From an uncultured Mycoplasmatota bacterium (GTDB lineage: Bacteria; Bacillota_I; Bacilli_A; RF39; UBA660): 32,895 nt of DNA. Made by a program: the position numbers and the translations under genes. Shown piece by piece: positions 1 through 6,710 of the stretch; positions within the stretch are counted from its first letter, which is position 1, and each line of letters starts with the position of its first letter. Location of the stretch: assembly GCA_948469065.1 (NCBI GenBank), contig CAOKKL010000003.1, positions 1-32,895 on the forward strand, read 5' to 3'. The notes beneath the pieces were generated by a model, which searched no databases, had not been told where the DNA came from, and saw only the letters and a program-made list of their open reading frames with translations.

Positions 1-80
1 AAGATTAAATGTCTATTTACTACTTGATTTTGTCATTTACTTTTTCATTTAAATTCTTTTTTAAAAATTCTTCTAAATTG

Positions 81-109
81 TTGCAATTATCAATAATATT
101 TGTTAAGAT
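81..109 (+). promoter_or_regulatory. Promoter of the tRNA-His gene
   Basis: TTGCAA at 81-86 and TAAGAT at 104-109 are separated by 17 bases, and the tRNA begins 11 bases after the -10 box. Bases 1-80 upstream hold no gene that I can see. Confidence 0.55.
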
Positions 110-120
110 ATTTTTGTTAT

Positions 121-197
121 GGCGGAATTGGTGAAGTGGTTAACACGCCGGATTGTGGCTCCGGTATGCATGGGTTCGATCCCCATATTTCGCCCCA
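121..197 (+). tRNA. tRNA-His (anticodon GTG), CCA encoded
   Basis: The cloverleaf folds fully. G121 is the extra G-1 typical of tRNA-His and faces C194, the discriminator. The 7-bp acceptor stem is 122-128 with 187-193 and contains one G-T pair. The anticodon GTG sits in the loop ATTGTGGC, the T arm reads GGGTTCGATCCCC, and CCA is encoded at 195-197. The gene strongly resembles the Bacillus-type tRNA-His. Its 3' end abuts an integrase remnant, so it is probably the attachment site of a lost element. Confidence 0.95.
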
Positions 198-258
198 TTT
201 TAGATTTAAACGTATCAAACCGTTTAAATATATATTGTTTTTAAGACCTTGCAGGGAA

Positions 259-499
259 TTATAAAAACAATCTGAGGAAAGGAATACTTGGTATTCTTTT
301 TTCTTGGTGTAAATATACATCACAAGTCATTGATACTTTGCTATGTCCCATTACTTCTTGATACATAATCGATTGATACTCCTTTATGTATCAAACGAGT
401 AGCATAACTATGTCGAAATTCATGTTGTGTTATTTCTTGCATATGAACTTTCTCACAAGCTATTTTTTTATGCCTATCTATCGTTGATATATTCTCTAA
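259..499 (-). pseudogene. Tyrosine recombinase (phage-type integrase), C-terminal remnant with frameshift
   Basis: Reading the minus strand from about 499 down gives the C-terminal catalytic part of a phage integrase. It includes the box HEFRHSYATRLIHKG (catalytic H-x-x-R) and, after a one-base frameshift near 380, MGHSKVSMTCDVYLHQEK, with the second His of the GHS motif and the Tyr nucleophile. It ends at a TAA at 259-261. Everything before the H-x-x-R box is missing, and an in-frame stop lies at about 500-502, where an unrelated gene fragment begins. The remnant points its 3' end at the tRNA-His gene, the usual arrangement for an element integrated in a tRNA 3' end. It cannot make an active enzyme. 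Bases 198-258 between the tRNA and the remnant hold nothing recognisable. Confidence 0.85.
282..302 (+). terminator. Possible rho-independent terminator after tRNA-His
   Basis: A 6-bp perfect stem GAATAC/GTATTC with a 3-base loop is followed by six T on the plus strand. It lies inside the integrase remnant (antisense), about 85 bases after the tRNA, so its function as the tRNA terminator is inferred. Confidence 0.4.
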
Positions 500-500
500 T

Positions 501-944
501 TACCATTCAAAGGAAGAAGATAGAATCATTTATACAGATATTTTATTTTCAGAAAATAGTGCTGTTGATGAAAACGGAAAAGAGAAAAAAGATTTTGTCC
601 CTAAATATCCTAATGAACAGCTACTAATAGAACAATTAGGTGATGTTGAAGAATTGGTAATTGGTGGATATCACTTTTCTGATTGTGTAAAAAGAGTTGG
701 AGAAACGGCTCTGAATATGGGAATAAATACAGTTATTGATTTAGATTTAACTGACCTTTTCTTTAACCTATACAAACAAGAAGAATATTTTGATCTTAAG
801 GAATATAATCCTGAAAAGTTTAAAAGGCAAATGATGAAATACGATTTAAAATATGGTGAGGAAGTTGCATTAGAACAATTTAATTTTGTTTATTCTAGTC
901 CAGTTTATGGTTTTTCTAATGAAGAAAGGAAACATAAAAAATAG
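501..944 (+). pseudogene. 5'-truncated gene of unknown family
   Basis: An open frame runs from the integrase junction (about 500) to the TAA at 942-944, 147 residues, without an initiation region. The only start-like codon in the conserved part is a TTG at 654 with no ribosome binding site, so I read this as the 3' part of a longer gene whose beginning was lost at the junction. The segment around 650-770 (IGGYHFSDCVKRVGETALN) has a Cys and helix pattern vaguely like the late nucleophile loop of isochorismatase-fold hydrolases, but I do not recognise the family with confidence. The C-terminus is rich in Lys, Glu and Tyr. It ends 14 bases before the Nudix gene and was probably co-transcribed with it. 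Confidence 0.5.
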
Positions 945-958
945 AAAGGAATTTTAAA

Positions 959-1444
959 ATGGAACAATATTATTGGAAAAAAGAAGATGTTCCACAGAAT
1001 TTAATTATCAAACAAGTCTATGGAGTCGCATTTTCTAATGACGGCAATATTCTTTTGCGAGTAGAAGATAATAAATATAAATTAACAGGTGGAAAGCCTG
1101 AAAAAAACGATAAAAATTGTGAAGAAACATTAAAAAGAGAATACTTAGAAGAATTAAATGTTACACTTGTAGATGTTTACTATTTAGGATATTTACTTGT
1201 TGAAGATGATAATAATGAAAAATATGCACAAGTTAGAATGGTGGCAAAAATTAAAAATATTGGAGAAATCAAACCAGATTCAGATAATGGAAAAATTTAT
1301 AAAAGATTTATGTCAAATATAGAAAATGTTAAAGATTATTTGAATTATGTTGATTTAGCTGGTAATCAATTAATTGATGATGCTATTACTATGGCAAAAG
1401 AAAAATATGAACTAAATTTTAATAACAAAGAATATTTTATATAA
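959..1444 (+). CDS. Nudix hydrolase
   Basis: A 161-residue protein with a Nudix box at about residues 43-68: GGKPEK, a loop, then CEETLKREYLEELNV. The metal-binding R-E-x-x-E-E core is intact. The loop between the Gly and the REYLEE core is one residue longer than the standard GX5EX7REUXEEXGU pattern, so the usual first Glu is not in register. Family members hydrolyse nucleoside diphosphate derivatives; the substrate cannot be read from sequence. The start ATG is preceded by AGAAAGGAATTTTAAA, a good ribosome binding site. It lies 14 bases after the truncated gene and just before an IS256-type element end. With the integrase scar it looks like leftover cargo of an integrated island. Confidence 0.8.
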   Translation: MEQYYWKKEDVPQNLIIKQVYGVAFSNDGNILLRVEDNKYKLTGGKPEKNDKNCEETLKREYLEELNVTLVDVYYLGYLLVEDDNNEKYAQVRMVAKIKNIGEIKPDSDNGKIYKRFMSNIENVKDYLNYVDLAGNQLIDDAITMAKEKYELNFNNKEYFI

Positions 1445-1504
1445 ATTATTTAGAATTTAATTGGAGTGTGTCCTAAAATCTGTGTAAATGATACTTTCCA
1501 AGAT

Positions 1505-1534
1505 AGAAGCAAGATACTATTTTGCTTCTTTTTA
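1505..1534 (+). terminator. Rho-independent terminator
   Basis: A perfect 8-bp stem AGAAGCAA/TTGCTTCT with an 8-9 base loop is followed by TTTTTATT on the plus strand. It lies inside the IS end, downstream of the Nudix gene, and probably now terminates that transcript. Confidence 0.7.
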
Positions 1535-1574
1535 TTATCTAAATAATAACATTTCTTTTAAAATTGTTAAAGAA

Positions 1575-1889
1575 CTAAATTCTTCCATCAAACATTATGG
1601 ATAGTTCTGATAATATAGGTCCCCAATTTTGATAAGGAGCAGTCCACTTTTTTGTAATATTTTTAGTAGATAAATATAGACATTTTAATAAGGACATTTC
1701 TGTTGGAAAAACAGATTTCGTTTTTGTATATTTTCTAAATTGTCGGTTTAAAGATTCAATCGTATTTGTAGTATACATTATCTTTCTTATTGGCTCTGAG
1801 AATTGAAAGAATGGACAAATAGCATCCCAGTTTTCTTCCCAGGTCTTGAATGCTCCAATATATTTATCTTTCCATTTTCTTCTCTTCTT
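1575..1889 (-). pseudogene. IS256-family transposase, C-terminal fragment
   Basis: The minus-strand frame gives about 104 residues that match the end of mutator-type (IS256) transposases: KWKDKYIGAFKTWEENWD, then MYTTNTIESLNRQFRK, which carries the catalytic Glu of the DDE triad, and the tail KWTAPYQNWGPILSELS. The two Asp of the triad and the DNA-binding region are absent. Upstream the frame dissolves into a Lys/Arg-rich low-complexity tract, so the gene is truncated, not merely mis-started. It is related to, but clearly a different copy from, the transposase at 30640-31845. Confidence 0.85.
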
Positions 1890-2042
1890 TCTTTTCTTCT
1901 TTTTATTATAATCTGTCCTTTTCTTTTTTGTCTAATTTATTGTAACCAATCCAATATGTATTTATAATAATATTAATATGATAAAAAAGTGATTAAAAAA
2001 TTGATGATAATAATTTTATTGAAAGCTTGTAGGAGGTTTTAA

Positions 2043-3533
2043 ATGATACAAATATTATTAGATACAAGTATAATTGTATATATGAAAAGCGATAATGCTT
2101 ATAAAGAAAAAATTGAAGAATTATTTAAAATAATAGACAACACTCCTAATTTGTATAAGTACATACATCCAGTAATTAGAAAAGAATTATTACAAAATGT
2201 TGATAATGAAACAAGAAATTTATTATTTGATAGATTGAAATCCTATAATATTTTAGAAAATTACAGAATGATTGATTCTAAATTAAAAGCTATAACAAAT
2301 CCTTTAAATAAAACGGTCAATGATCAATTAGATGATATCATTTTAAATGAACTATATGTTGGTAAAGTAGATTTTTTAATCACTGAAGATAACAAAATAA
2401 AAGAAAAGTCAATCTTATTAGGCATAGGTCAAAAAGTAATGAATATTAATGAATTCATTTTTCTAAATAGAAATGAGAAAGATATAAACTATAATATTAT
2501 GGATATTTATAAAGTTAAGTTTGGAGATTTAAATATAAATGATTCTTTTTTTGATTCGCTAAAAAAAGACTATCCTGAATTTTTAGATTGGTATGAAAGA
2601 AAGGTCAATGAAGATGTATATTGCTATAAAGACCAAGATAAGATATTAGGATTATTAATTCTTAAAAATGAGGAACCTGAATCAGAAGATTATTCTGACA
2701 TTAAACCCATGATGAAACTAAATAGAAAATTAAAAATTTCAACTTTTAAAGTAGATATTAGTGGCAAAAAAATTCGAGAAAGGTTTATGAAAATAATATT
2801 TGATCAAGCATTATTTTCCATGGTAGACGAGATATATTTTACTATATATGATAATAATGATAAAAAGATAAATTTAATAAGATATTTTGAAAAATTTGGT
2901 TTTAATTATTATGGAAAAAAGAATAATGAATTAGTATATATTAGGAGTATGAAAAAGAATTTTGATAATAAAAATCCTTTGATAAATTATCCATACATAA
3001 AAAGAAATAATGATACATTTGTTATTCCAATCAATCCTAATTATTATACATATTTATTTCCTAATTCGATATTATATAGAAAATCATATAAGGATATTCA
3101 TATACCAGTTGAATATACTATAAATAAATATTATATTACAAATGATAAGTGGTTAGAGATTCCAAAAGTTGGAGATAACATTGTCTTTTATCGTAGTCGA
3201 CAAAAAGGTGCTACTGCTAAATATTCAAGTGTATTAACAACTATTGGTGTTGTTACCAATCTATTTATTCCAAAAAATGAACAAGAGTTAATTAATAAAG
3301 TTTCTGGGAGAACAATGTATGATACAAAGGAATTAAGAAAAATATATAGTAAAAACACTTATGTAATTGAATTTGCATATATAACTACTTTAGATAAAAA
3401 ATTAAATTATGATTTTTGTAAAACAAATGGCATATTAGAAGTAATCCCACGAGGAGTTACTAAAATTGATAACACACAATTTCAAAAAATAATTGAATTT
3501 GGTAAAGTTGATTCGACTCTAATTATTAAATAA
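2043..3533 (+). CDS. PIN domain - GNAT - PUA/EVE-like fusion protein
   Basis: A 496-residue cytosolic protein with three apparent domains. Residues 1-135 look like a PIN ribonuclease domain: LLDTS with D7, E48 in VIRKELL, D97/D98 in QLDDIILNEL, and D110 and D116 in VDFLITEDNKIKEKS, which is the expected order of acidic metal-binding residues. Residues about 225-325 read as a GNAT acetyltransferase core (KISTFKVDISGKKIRERFM, a Q/R-x-x-G/A-like acetyl-CoA loop, and the FEKFGF motif near the end). Residues about 370-490 resemble a PUA-like (ASCH/EVE) fold: IPKVGDNIVFYRS, then TIGVVTNLF and YVIEFAYI. PIN plus acetyltransferase suggests a toxin or defence RNA enzyme with an RNA- or modified-base-binding module, but that is inference. 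It has a perfect AGGAGG ribosome binding site 7 bases before ATG, stands alone, and is more AT-rich than the chromosomal genes. Bases 3534-3772 downstream hold no convincing gene. Confidence 0.7.
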   Translation: MIQILLDTSIIVYMKSDNAYKEKIEELFKIIDNTPNLYKYIHPVIRKELLQNVDNETRNLLFDRLKSYNILENYRMIDSKLKAITNPLNKTVNDQLDDIILNELYVGKVDFLITEDNKIKEKSILLGIGQKVMNINEFIFLNRNEKDINYNIMDIYKVKFGDLNINDSFFDSLKKDYPEFLDWYERKVNEDVYCYKDQDKILGLLILKNEEPESEDYSDIKPMMKLNRKLKISTFKVDISGKKIRERFMKIIFDQALFSMVDEIYFTIYDNNDKKINLIRYFEKFGFNYYGKKNNELVYIRSMKKNFDNKNPLINYPYIKRNNDTFVIPINPNYYTYLFPNSILYRKSYKDIHIPVEYTINKYYITNDKWLEIPKVGDNIVFYRSRQKGATAKYSSVLTTIGVVTNLFIPKNEQELINKVSGRTMYDTKELRKIYSKNTYVIEFAYITTLDKKLNYDFCKTNGILEVIPRGVTKIDNTQFQKIIEFGKVDSTLIIK

Positions 3534-3772
3534 AATTCATTAATTTATTTATTACTTTCAATTTACTAACAAATTCTAAAGATTTAAGTTCCTTTTATTT
3601 AAATTATAAATATAATTTTTTAACTTGCTTGATCATGAATTACTGTAAATGCATTATATCCATTCTTCAGTTTTCCAATAAAACTTAATATTGACTATCA
3701 TTAGATTCATTTTACACACTTAAAATGTAAAAAATTCTTTATTTACAATTATTAAAATGAAAAGTTGTATTT

Positions 3773-4720
3773 TCAATCATTTATTCTCCATTTTGGAGGA
3801 TAAAAATAATCAATTGGTTCTTTTTTGGCAATATATCTTTTTTTTATTTTTTTTCGATTGGATTTTAATTCTGGAAATGCTTCTCTACAGTATTTATCAA
3901 TTTCGCAAAAAAGACCTTGGCAATCAATTAATTGAAGCTTTCTATTACCAATCATTTTAAAATCATATCCTAATCGCTTCAATTCTTCTTGATGATCATA
4001 CATATATTTTATAATTTCTTCATTTGAATAGTCTCCAGTACTAATAAAACATTTTGCAATTCCTCTTTTTGAACCTGGACCTACTACAGTAAATTCATTT
4101 TCTTTAAAATTTACTACATCACTATAATTGATATCTGTAACTAATTGGTAAGCTAAAAAGTTGCCAATTAAAGGATATGATTTTAAAATATCAAATGCTT
4201 CTTTCATATTTTTACAAGCCAATAATCTTTTATCAATTTTATCTTCAAAAAACATTTTTCTTAACAATGCTAAATGATTTTCATGTTTTCGCTCATAACC
4301 AAAGGCTTTATTTGCACAACTTATATAAGCGTCATTATAAATTGCTTTGCCATTTATGATTGCATTTTCTAAAATTTTCGAAAAAATATTAAAATCAAAT
4401 TTAATTAAAGTGATATCTCCAATTTCTTTTTCTAACAATTCCCAAGTAAATTCTTTATTAAATAATTTAAATAAAATAATACGAAAAATTATATCTTCAT
4501 CTTTATATTTTTTCCCATTATAAATAATATTGCGCAGCAAATACTGACTTATTCGATCATTTACTCGATAGGTATTACAAAATTTATATTCTTGTAAAAT
4601 CTTATCATTTGTCCAAGGAGCAGGTTTCTTTTGCTTCTTTTTAAAAAAAATATTTTGTCTTTCAAATGCAAAATACCAATACAAATCATAAATCTTATCT
4701 CTTTTTATCAGTTTATTCAT
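3773..4720 (-). CDS. Putative DNA base hypermodification protein (5-hmdU DNA kinase helical-domain-like)
   Basis: A 315-residue protein. Residues 28-70 (KKPAPWTNDKILQEYKFCN, then TYRVNDRISQYLLRN) together with the later FRIILFKLFNKEFTWELLE and AYISCANKAFGYERK follow the pattern I recall for the helical domain attached to phage 5-hydroxymethyl-dU DNA kinases (Pfam HMUDK_hel, formerly aGPT-PPlase clade 2). The fold is predicted to be related to helix-hairpin-helix DNA glycosylases. There is no P-loop, so the kinase half is absent. In phages such proteins act on thymine derivatives in DNA; as a free-standing bacterial gene the function is unknown, possibly base modification or removal. The family call is from memory of conserved motifs and would need a profile search. 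It sits next to the PIN-GNAT gene in accessory DNA, convergent with it. Confidence 0.6.
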   Translation of the reverse strand: MNKLIKRDKIYDLYWYFAFERQNIFFKKKQKKPAPWTNDKILQEYKFCNTYRVNDRISQYLLRNIIYNGKKYKDEDIIFRIILFKLFNKEFTWELLEKEIGDITLIKFDFNIFSKILENAIINGKAIYNDAYISCANKAFGYERKHENHLALLRKMFFEDKIDKRLLACKNMKEAFDILKSYPLIGNFLAYQLVTDINYSDVVNFKENEFTVVGPGSKRGIAKCFISTGDYSNEEIIKYMYDHQEELKRLGYDFKMIGNRKLQLIDCQGLFCEIDKYCREAFPELKSNRKKIKKRYIAKKEPIDYFYPPKWRIND

Positions 4721-4807
4721 TTAAAGTCTCTTTCTTTTTTTTATTATATCAATTTTTTATCTTATAACGCAAAAGTTAAAGTTATTGTAGACATAAAATA
4801 CAAAATT

Positions 4808-5177
4808 TTACTTTTTTTCTCTTTTTTTAGAATATGCTATTTCTTCTTCTCTTTGTTTTTTTTGAGTTGCTTCTTGATATAATCTATAGAGTAAAGAATT
4901 GTTATCGAATTGATTTACAGATTGGTAAATATCATGTAAATTAGAGCCTGTCAATTTTTCTTTTCTTATTTGATCTCCTCTTCGTGCTATTTCATAGATT
5001 TCCCAAATTGTTGATTTTGGTTTTGCCTCTATACTTTGTTCTTTTTTTTCTTCCATCATAAACTTTTTTTCATTCTCTTTTGAATTTTTTCTTTGTTGAG
5101 AAGAATTTTCCTTGTTTGGAAATCTTGAAACAGGTTTTGTTGTTTCTATATTTGCAACAGAAAATTTTTTTTCCATT
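4808..5177 (-). CDS. Small charged hypothetical protein
   Basis: A 122-residue protein that I do not recognise. I chose the ATG at 5177 because GGAGG lies six bases upstream; longer readings from 5218 have no ribosome binding site. It is rich in Lys, Glu and Gln with no membrane segment. Residues 1-60 look disordered (repeated Asn, Ser, Gln, Lys). Residues 62-100 form a likely ordered core (TIWEIYEIARRGDQIRKEK, then LHDIYQSVNQFDNNSLLYRLYQEA). The tail, KKQREEEIAYSKKREKK, is a charged helix. It is divergently transcribed from the LigD-like gene, 117 bases away; any link to DNA repair is speculation. Confidence 0.65.
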
Positions 5178-5294
5178 TTATCCTCCATTTTAATTTGATT
5201 ATAAGAAAGTAAGAGCATTTCGTCAAGGATGTTACGTTTTTTATACTTGCATAACTTATTATAATTTTCGCAAACTATCAGTGAGGGATTAAAA

Positions 5295-6710
5295 ATGAAA
5301 GATAAATTACAAAAGTATCAAGAAAAACGAAATTTTAATAAAACAAAGGAACCCTTTGGAAAAGTGGAAAAAAGACAAAAAAAATTACGTTTTGTTGTTC
5401 AACACCATTTAGCAAGACGAGATCATTATGATTTTCGCTTGGAGTGGGATGGCACTTTGAAAAGCTGGGCTGTTCCCAAAGGACCATCTTTTCAAAATAA
5501 GGATAAACGTTTAGCAGTTCATGTTGAAGATCATCCTCTTTCTTATCGCCATTTTGAAGGAACGATTCCCAAAGGAGAATATGGTGGTGGAACTGTAATG
5601 CTATGGGATGAAGGATTTTGGGAACCTATTGAAGATCCAAAAAAGGGATTTCAAAATGGTTCTCTTAAGTTTGTATTAAAAGGAAAAAGATTAAAAGGAT
5701 TATGGACATTAATTTTTTATAAAGAAAATCATTGGTTATTAATAAAAGAAAAAGATGAATATGAAAAAGATATTGACATTTCAAAATGGAATATTAGTAT
5801 TAAAACACAACGTACTATGGAAGAAATTGAAAATGGGTTAAAGAAGAAAAAAACTTCTATAAAAGAATCTATTGTAGAAAATATATTAATTACACATCCA
5901 AAAAAGTTAATTTATAAACGTCCTAAAATTACCAAAATGGATATTGCATTATATTATCAAAAAGTAGCGAAAAGAATGATGCCGTTTCTTGAAAATCGTA
6001 TTGTCAGTACCATTCGTGCTCCAGAAGGAATTGAATCAGAACAGTTTTTCAAAAAGCATTTCGATAATAAAAATCCGGGAATAGGAAAAAAGATAATACC
6101 TAGTGAAAAAGGAAATGCAGAAGATTACTATTATTTTAAAAATATGGAAGGATTACTTTCTGAAGTCCAGCAAAATAGTTTTGAATTTCATGTTTGGGCT
6201 AGTAATATTAAATCTATTAATCATCCCAATATTCTAGTATTCGATTTAGATCCAGATGAAAAGATGAGTTTAAAAAAAGTACGGCAAGGTGTTATGGATT
6301 TAAAAAGTATTTTAGATGAGTTATCGATTACTTCTTTTTTAAAAACAAGTGGTGGAAAAGGTTATCATGTTGTAGTACCAATTTCATCTTTAAAAAATTG
6401 GAAGAGCTTTAAAACATTTGCTCAAAATATTGCGAAATTAATGGAGACGAAATGGCCAGATAAATACACGAGTAATGTACGAAAAGAAAGCCGAAAAAAT
6501 AAAATATTTATCGATTGGATTCGTAATGCCAAAAGTGCTACAAGTGTCGCTCCATATTCTCTTCGTTTACGTTCTGGAGCTCCAGTTTCTATGCCAATTT
6601 CTTGGAATGAGTTAAATAAAGTAAAACCAAATTCTATTAAAATGAAAGATGCTATTCTTAGATTAAAAAGGAAAGATCCTTGGGAAAATTTTTTTAATAT
6701 AGCACAATAA
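5295..6710 (+). CDS. ligD: LigD-type protein: 3'-phosphoesterase + polymerase domains, no ligase domain
   Basis: A 471-residue protein of the bacterial non-homologous end-joining family. Residues 30-155 form the 3'-phosphoesterase domain with its metal ligands and active-site residues in place: H38, H44, D46 and R48 in QHHLARRDHYDFRLE, and H80 and Y84 in VEDHPLSY. Residues about 195-465 form the archaeo-eukaryotic-primase-like polymerase domain with the D-x-D pair in DLDPDE (about 317 and 319), the His in GKGYHVVVP (about 358) and the third Asp in FIDWIRN (about 406). The ATP-dependent ligase domain (KxDG motif) found in typical LigD is missing, and no ku gene lies in the window. The protein would process and extend broken 3' ends and need a ligase in trans. 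Start ATG follows GAGGGATTAAAA. Confidence 0.92.
   Translation: MKDKLQKYQEKRNFNKTKEPFGKVEKRQKKLRFVVQHHLARRDHYDFRLEWDGTLKSWAVPKGPSFQNKDKRLAVHVEDHPLSYRHFEGTIPKGEYGGGTVMLWDEGFWEPIEDPKKGFQNGSLKFVLKGKRLKGLWTLIFYKENHWLLIKEKDEYEKDIDISKWNISIKTQRTMEEIENGLKKKKTSIKESIVENILITHPKKLIYKRPKITKMDIALYYQKVAKRMMPFLENRIVSTIRAPEGIESEQFFKKHFDNKNPGIGKKIIPSEKGNAEDYYYFKNMEGLLSEVQQNSFEFHVWASNIKSINHPNILVFDLDPDEKMSLKKVRQGVMDLKSILDELSITSFLKTSGGKGYHVVVPISSLKNWKSFKTFAQNIAKLMETKWPDKYTSNVRKESRKNKIFIDWIRNAKSATSVAPYSLRLRSGAPVSMPISWNELNKVKPNSIKMKDAILRLKRKDPWENFFNIAQ

What the first reader, a model, noticed from the sequence alone, without database searches (positions are those of the whole stretch)
3773..4720. Free-standing homologue of the 5-hmdU DNA kinase helical domain
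The CN-TYRVNDR region and the following helices resemble the domain fused to phage kinases that hypermodify thymine. Here it is a separate bacterial gene with no kinase partner, beside a probable RNA-targeting protein. It could edit, read or remove modified phage bases.
Basis: partly seen in the sequence, partly recalled or inferred. Interest (0 to 1): 0.6.

Follow-up and report, generated by a model that had tools for sequence, protein, structure and literature searches.

The report
Solo 5-hmdU-kinase helical-domain enzyme
A small-genome gut bacterium carries, in a variable genomic island, an intact stand-alone protein of the family that phages use when they chemically decorate their thymines; relatives across bacteria sit in probable antiviral gene sets without the phage kinase, so it is most likely part of bacterial immunity, although its reaction is unknown.

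Summary
Window 3773-4720(-) encodes an intact 315-aa, full-length PF18723 (HMUDK_hel) protein (E 1.3e-101, 340 bits). It has one copy in its genome and is under purifying selection (dN/dS 0.15). It is not an oddity: related stand-alone genes are scattered through Bacilli, Clostridia, Cyanobacteria and plasmids (20 of 291 genomes of its family), and phages too often carry the domain unfused. The 20 PF18723-positive family genomes lack the phage kinase (PF18748) and amino acid:DNA transferase (PF18724). The predicted fold (pLDDT 94) is of the HhH-glycosylase type, closest to the queuosine-salvage hydrolase QNG1 and then to DNA glycosylases. By motif, however, the catalytic Asp is replaced by GPG, while another residue set is invariant from phage to bacteria. 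Relatives are linked to an unclassified radical-SAM/SPASM enzyme, MazG/MazG_C, thymidylate-synthase-like proteins, Nmad2 and TIR/CBASS genes. In the window the gene lies in a tRNA-His integration hotspot beside a PADLOC defence candidate. Best reading: a kinase-independent base- or nucleotide-processing enzyme of nucleotide-centred antiviral systems, already predicted in outline by others. Base removal is disfavoured. The reaction and the in-vivo role are untested.

The parts
3773..4720 (-). CDS, 315 aa, stand-alone PF18723 (HMUDK_hel / aGPT-Pplase clade 1) protein
   Evidence: 340 bits; alignments; AF2 model pLDDT 94; dN/dS 0.15 vs L055
4553..4579 (-). CN-TYRVNDR motif, residues 48-56; N49, R52, D55 invariant from phages to bacteria
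4145..4177 (-). helix-hairpin-helix, YPLIGNFLAYQ, residues 182-192; G186 and F188 invariant
   Evidence: HhH-type predicted fold
4070..4081 (-). GPGS, residues 214-217, at the place of the catalytic Asp loop of HhH-GPD glycosylases
   Evidence: motif comparison; inference, no superposition was possible
3884..3928 (-). C-terminal helix IDCQGLFCEIDKYCR, residues 265-279; C272, E273, K276 invariant
122..197 (+). tRNA-His, anchor of the integration hotspot
   Evidence: same anchor in same-genus genome G262 (L185)
264..490 (-). remnant of a tyrosine integrase that is intact in G262 (L185 2443-3357)
   Evidence: window 68-488 is 95.5% identical to L185 2247-2671
491..5250 (.). variable cargo between tRNA-His and LigD: Nudix, PDC-M11A, HMUDK_hel, small ORF; replaced by other genes in G262
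   Evidence: homology resumes at 5251; G+C 23.7% vs 27-30% in the flanks
2043..3533 (+). PDC-M11A phage-defence candidate (weak PIN at the N-terminus, acetyltransferase-like middle), convergent neighbour
   Evidence: (446 bits, 3-495)
5295..6710 (+). LigD 3'-phosphoesterase + primase-polymerase; chromosomal flank, not a partner
   Evidence: no co-occurrence with PF18723; conserved flank in G262

Best explanation
Shown: the gene is an intact, selected, stand-alone member of PF18723 (aGPT-Pplase clade 1) with a predicted HhH-glycosylase-type fold, carried as cargo of a tRNA-His integration hotspot. Its bacterial relatives lack the 5-hmdU kinase and amino acid:DNA transferase where these were searched, but sit recurrently with a radical-SAM/SPASM enzyme, MazG/MazG_C, thymidylate-synthase-like proteins, dCTP-deaminase-like proteins, Nmad2 and TIR/CBASS genes. 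Inferred: the protein binds a 5-substituted deoxyuridine (5-hydroxymethyl-type) base, flipped from DNA or as a nucleotide, in the pocket of the HhH fold. It uses the family-invariant Arg/Asp/Cys/Glu/Lys set for chemistry at the base substituent rather than for cutting the glycosidic bond. In bacteria this serves nucleotide-centred antiviral systems; where a radical-SAM partner is present, that enzyme would process the product. In the window the gene works alone, so its substrate would have to come from the infecting phage or from oxidised thymine.
For: Family. Fold: QNG1 Z 11.2 over 1-289; AGOG 9.5, 3-methyladenine glycosylase 9.1, Mag1 8.8; phage HMUDK_hel models, E down to 1e-14. Kinase and transferase absent in 20/20 positive family genomes, with phage SN1 ringing as kinase control, and absent from 12 plasmids, LuckyBarnes and Montesquieu. 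Radical-SAM link: adjacent on the same strand in 25 loci, 22 immediately upstream; the orthologue occurs in only 4 of 291 family genomes, all 4 beside PF18723 (hypergeometric about 2e-5, or about 3e-4 if the two genomes of one genus count once). Link to conflict genes: TIR-Nmad2-HMUDK_hel-rSAM (L050), capV/MazG/TIR/Nmad2 (L042), HTH-ImmA-TS-HMUDK_hel-MazG on plasmids. Hotspot. Independent prediction: aGPT-Pplase, MazG, MazG-C and NMAD listed as predicted but unvalidated defence domains (PMC13092281). Selection.
Against: No activity is known for the window protein or, in the papers I could read, for the isolated domain. Most Firmicute members (40 of 62 tree rows), the window included, have neither the radical-SAM partner nor any shared neighbour, which weakens a multi-gene immune-system reading. 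tRNA proximity across the clade is only about twofold over random placement (15 vs 8.0 expected). The closest solved fold hydrolyses a glycosidic bond. The Z values are moderate for a helical protein. The missing Asp rests on motif alignment, not on superposed coordinates. PADLOC has no model for the protein itself.
Confidence: 0.45

Rival explanations
1. Nucleotide-level N-glycosidase: like QNG1, which hydrolyses queuosine 5'-monophosphate, it cleaves a modified nucleoside monophosphate, with MazG-type enzymes supplying the monophosphate, either as salvage or as nucleotide depletion in defence.
For: QNG1/DUF2419 is the best solved fold (Z 11.2, full length); MazG/MazG_C neighbours in 20 loci; rSAM-MazG fusions in relatives.
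Against: No profile similarity to Q_salvage; the QNG1 Lys and Asp motifs (F.KRA, CADYK) have no counterpart by motif (F188, GPG); MazG_C was not found in the window's family (though without a positive control).
Confidence: 0.15
2. Host DNA modification: a thymidine-hypermodification step acting on the bacterium's own DNA as an epigenetic or self mark, with radical-SAM tailoring where present.
For: PF18723 belongs to the phage thymidine-hypermodification cassette, which also holds a radical-SAM gene (SN1; PMC9476957); the bacterial radical-SAM link.
Against: Kinase, transferase and, in the own genome, thymidylate synthase/hydroxymethylase were not found (genome 69% complete), so no route to hmdU is visible; patchy distribution, 20 of 291 genomes.
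Confidence: 0.15
3. DNA glycosylase that removes hmdU or hypermodified thymine from phage DNA (eraser or restriction glycosylase).
For: HhH-glycosylase-type fold.
Against: The catalytic Asp position reads GPG in bacteria and phages alike, whereas ADDT keeps PVDFDNA; phages that need the modified base carry the same invariant residues.
Confidence: 0.08
4. Binding-only reader or regulatory subunit that presents the base to a partner enzyme (kinase in phages, radical SAM or an unknown enzyme in bacteria).
For: Named and found as the helical part of 5-hmdU DNA kinase, fused in phage SP10; no classical glycosylase catalytic Asp.
Against: Fourteen invariant columns, including R52, D55, D196, C272, E273 and K276, across proteins of 21-64% identity to the window suggest chemistry; it exists without any conserved partner.
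Confidence: 0.14
5. Functionless relic of a phage hypermodification gene.
For: Located in a mobile hotspot with other remnants.
Against: dN/dS 0.09-0.16 across bacterial pairs; about 70% identity and intact full length in most family members; 459 relatives among the candidates in public genomes.
Confidence: 0.03

Closest known systems
Pfam PF18723 HMUDK_hel / aGPT-Pplase clade 1 (phages SN1, ViI-like SeF6a, SP10, phiW-14)
   Same: Same full-length domain, same invariant residues, same predicted fold
   Different: 21-32% identity to the phage members aligned here; the bacterial clade lacks the kinase and transferase and has other neighbours
Predicted nucleotide-centred defence systems (aGPT-Pplase, MazG, MazG-C, NMAD; DefensePredictor 2026, PMC13092281, citing Burroughs et al. 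2015)
   Same: Relatives L042, L043, L045, L046, L050 and L117 show these combinations, several beside TIR/CBASS genes
   Different: The window gene is solo; the Firmicute clade uses a radical-SAM partner or none; unvalidated
QNG1 / DUF2419 queuosine-salvage nucleosidase
   Same: Best solved-structure match over the whole protein (Z 11.2)
   Different: No sequence similarity detected; catalytic Lys/Asp motifs not matched
HhH-GPD DNA glycosylases (AGOG, AlkA, OGG1, EndoIII)
   Same: Helical core and HhH hairpin
   Different: Catalytic Asp (and Lys) positions not conserved, by motif
ADDT (PF18724, amino acid:DNA transferase / aGPT-Pplase clade 2)
   Same: Weak fold similarity in BFVD (E about 0.04, TM about 0.5)
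   Different: No PF18724 match to the window protein; ADDT keeps PVDFDN, HMUDK_hel has GPG

Membership tests
PF18723 HMUDK_hel | Profile score above the curated cut-off over the full domain | tested here: met
   340 bits vs 25, positions 2-280 of 281
PF18723 HMUDK_hel | Residues invariant across phage members | tested here: met
5-hmdU DNA kinase (fused or two-gene) | P-loop kinase PF18748 in the protein or genome | tested here: not met
   Absent in the protein and in 20 PF18723-positive genomes; SN1 control rings. Own genome 69% complete
Phage-type thymidine hypermodification pathway | PF18724 transferase and pyrimidine hydroxymethylase alongside | tested here: not met
   PF18724 in none of the 20 genomes (SN1 rings); no PF00303 in the own genome. 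Caveat: incomplete genome
HhH-GPD DNA glycosylase | HhH fold | tested here: met
   Predicted model; moderate Z for a helical protein, but the top rows consistently show this fold class
HhH-GPD DNA glycosylase | Catalytic Asp after the HhH hairpin | tested here: not met
   GPG at that place in nearly all members (one has GIG); motif-based
HhH-GPD DNA glycosylase | Base excision activity | not testable with these tools
   needs biochemistry
QNG1 / Q_salvage (PF10343) | Sequence profile and Lys/Asp motifs | tested here: not met
   no Pfam hit; hhalign probability 0.1%
ADDT PF18724 | Profile match | tested here: not met
   not among the matches up to E 1
Anti-phage defence system | Association with defence genes or islands | tested here: inconclusive
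   PDC-M11A neighbour and tRNA hotspot; TIR/CBASS in relatives; most Firmicute loci have no shared neighbour
Anti-phage defence system | Protection against phage | not testable with these tools
   needs plaque assays

The most novel reading that the evidence does not exclude
A kinase-independent class of HhH-fold enzymes that chemically alters C5-substituted deoxyuridine in invading DNA or its nucleotide precursors. In Bacilli and Bacteroidota it would be paired with an undescribed radical-SAM/SPASM enzyme, in the latter also with Nmad2 and a ThsB-like TIR: a bacterial immune pathway built from the same chemistry that phages use to protect their DNA.
Probability: 0.25. Interest if true: 0.78.

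Novelty: new variant of a known kind. Interest (0 to 1): 0.5.

Why it matters
The family is named after a kinase complex, and NCBI labels its bacterial members 'nucleotide kinase domain-containing protein', yet most members examined here have no kinase. Showing that the domain works without kinase or transferase, naming its invariant residues and finding its radical-SAM partner gives a direct route to assay what the domain itself does, a missing step in thymine hypermodification. It also tests whether bacteria turned the phage's own base chemistry into immunity.

Tried and rejected
LigD as partner: close in the window, in L028/L090 and in L056, but LigD is in 46 of 291 family genomes and in only 4 of 20 PF18723-positive ones (3.2 expected), and tRNA-His/LigD is a chromosomal anchor in G262 and L056. 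Ku: none in the own genome. Sequence search of solved structures: nothing meaningful. Profile alignment to Q_salvage: no signal. MazG_C in the window's family: none found, but the search had no positive control. Radical-SAM neighbour as a viperin: PADLOC pVip matches cover only the N-terminal radical-SAM core (47 bits), and no NCBIfam equivalog cut-off is reached, so it is an unclassified rSAM/SPASM. Identity of the '5hmdUk' in the E. coli system validated by DefensePredictor: three blastn searches of E. coli genomes found nothing, so I cannot say whether it is PF18723 or PF18748. Key papers (Lee 2022, Iyer 2013, Burroughs 2015) are not held. The careful phylogeny did not finish; the quick tree was used.

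Full report
Observation. The ORF at 3773-4720 on the minus strand encodes 315 aa. Pfam gives one strong hit, PF18723 HMUDK_hel, E 1.3e-101, 340 bits, covering residues 9-286 and nearly the whole profile; PHROG 2396 agrees. NCBIfam and PADLOC have no model for it. It is the only copy in the held genome (1.06 Mb, 69% complete). Against its nearest relative (L055, 79% identity) dN/dS is 0.15, so it is under purifying selection.

How free-standing is it really? In phage SN1 the PF18723 protein (annotated aGPT-Pplase1) is a separate gene beside a separate kinase (PF18748), with PF18724 ADDT (annotated aGPT-Pplase2) and a radical-SAM gene in the same cassette (PMC9476957). In SeF6a it is unfused and follows a MazG-like gene, with the kinase elsewhere in the phage. 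Phages Montesquieu and LuckyBarnes have it near a thymidylate synthase/hydroxymethylase and have no PF18748 or PF18724 at all. Bacillus phage SP10 is a true fusion by length and name (637 aa, '5-hmdU DNA kinase'). So 'free-standing' is not the unusual feature; independence from kinase and transferase is.

Distribution. Twenty of 291 genomes of the window's family carry PF18723, spread over 19 of 150 genera, at about 70% identity with no common neighbours. Plasmid relatives at 38-51% identity come from Cyanobacteria, Rhizobiales, Actinomycetes and Bacteroidota, with archaeal ones near 28%. The quick tree puts the Firmicute-type proteins in one group (62 rows, support 99) near the cyanobacterial group, with the window in a small solo subgroup with L055 and L061 (support 98).

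Partners in relatives. The commonest neighbour is a radical-SAM/SPASM protein, same strand, in 25 loci, 22 of them immediately upstream, including the Bacteroidota plasmid L050 and the viral contig L135 (HTH-ImmA-TS-HMUDK_hel-rSAM), where it lies downstream. Its close orthologue (73-84% identity) is found in only 4 of 291 family genomes, and all four have it next to PF18723; by hand the hypergeometric chance is about 2e-5, or about 3e-4 if the two genomes of one genus count once. Eight other genomes have 41-45% identical radical-SAM proteins with a C-terminal extension that looks MazG-like by eye. In cyanobacteria the gene is followed by DUF1643, MazG+MazG_C (PF18722) and a dCTP-deaminase-like protein. 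On plasmids it sits in HTH/ImmA/thymidylate-synthase/HMUDK_hel/MazG cassettes, next to a CBASS phospholipase with TIR and an Nmad2-cluster gene (L042), or as TIR (ThsB-like)-Nmad2-HMUDK_hel-rSAM (L050). DefensePredictor independently lists aGPT-Pplase, MazG, MazG-C and NMAD as predicted but unvalidated defence domains (PMC13092281). It also reports validated E. coli systems whose domains include a thymidylate synthase and a '5-hmdU DNA kinase'; I could not determine whether that label means PF18723.

Window context. The tRNA-His at 122-197, with the adjacent DNA to 488, is 95.5% identical to the same place in a same-genus genome (G262, locus L185). There an intact tyrosine integrase follows, then other cargo (Ppx-like, acetyltransferase), and then the same LigD gene; homology resumes at window 5251. 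So roughly 491-5250 is exchangeable cargo of a tRNA-His hotspot, with lower G+C (23.7%) than the flanks. The cargo holds PDC-M11A and HMUDK_hel, convergently oriented. LigD is the chromosomal side, not a partner. Locus L056 shows radical-SAM, HMUDK_hel, tRNA-His and LigD in a row, so the same type of site was used there too.

Fold and active site. The AF2 model from 34 relatives has pLDDT 94.0 and pTM 0.91. Against PDB, Foldseek alone is weak (best E 0.24, MutY). The VIA second look gives QNG1/DUF2419 Z 11.2 over residues 1-289, then AGOG 9.5 and other HhH DNA glycosylases 7-9. For an all-helical protein such Z values are only moderate, but the top rows consistently show HhH-type enzymes. BFVD returns phage HMUDK_hel proteins (E down to 1e-14) and, far lower, ADDT. 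Across bacteria and phages the invariant residues are R21, F47, N49, R52, D55, G186, F188, D196, G214, G216, G220, C272, E273 and K276. By motif, the HhH hairpin is YPLIGNFLAYQ, and the loop that carries the catalytic Asp in glycosylases (VDTH in EndoIII and PVDV in OGG1, from general knowledge; PVDFDN in ADDT; CADYK in QNG1 relatives) reads GPGS here. This argues against base excision and for other chemistry or binding.

Mechanism. Shown: family, predicted fold, selection, absence of kinase and transferase in the searched genomes, a radical-SAM link in part of the clade, conflict-gene neighbours in distant relatives, and hotspot location. Inferred: binding of a 5-substituted dU, chemistry at the substituent, antiviral role, phage- or damage-derived substrate. 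Rivals are nucleotide N-glycosidase (QNG1-like), self-DNA modification, reader subunit, DNA glycosylase and relic, ranked in the rival list.

Novelty. The family and the idea that it acts in nucleotide-centred conflict systems are known (PMC13092281; Burroughs 2015 is cited there, not read here). New here, as far as I could check, are the kinase- and transferase-free Firmicute chromosomal clade, its unclassified radical-SAM/SPASM partner, the TIR-Nmad2-HMUDK_hel-rSAM arrangement, and the QNG1-like fold with a lost catalytic Asp. I therefore rate it a new variant of a known kind.

Noticed in passing
window 5295-6710: LigD with phosphoesterase and primase-polymerase domains but no ligase domain; no Ku found in the held genome. 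In L090 the LigD gene is next to a separate ATP-dependent ligase gene.
   Followed up: partly
L155-L158 and four further family genomes: Radical-SAM/SPASM proteins 41-45% identical to the HMUDK_hel-linked one, with a C-terminal extension that looks MazG-like by eye (547-653 aa), in genomes without PF18723.
   Followed up: partly
H41-H60 (plasmid records): NCBI names these PF18723 proteins 'nucleotide kinase domain-containing protein', although PF18723 is not a kinase domain and no PF18748 was found in the plasmids searched; one phage record labels the same gene 'terminase small subunit' (H99).
   Followed up: no
L047 5977-6929: Acinetobacter plasmid copy is split into two ORFs, probably a frameshifted gene.
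   Followed up: no
L060 and L069: One Clostridia MAG (BRZ_ER bin71) carries two PF18723 copies on different contigs, each with its own upstream radical-SAM gene.
   Followed up: no
L107: A MAG labelled Candidatus Saccharibacteria carries a 67% identical copy: horizontal transfer or mis-binning.
   Followed up: no
window 1500-1910: Apparent remnant of a transposase-like gene between the Nudix gene and PDC-M11A, by eye only.
   Followed up: no
L110, L112, L113, L115, L131: In five Clostridia loci HMUDK_hel lies in a conserved same-strand gene row between an unidentified ORF (about 163 aa) and another (about 230 aa), a possible operon of another kind.
   Followed up: no
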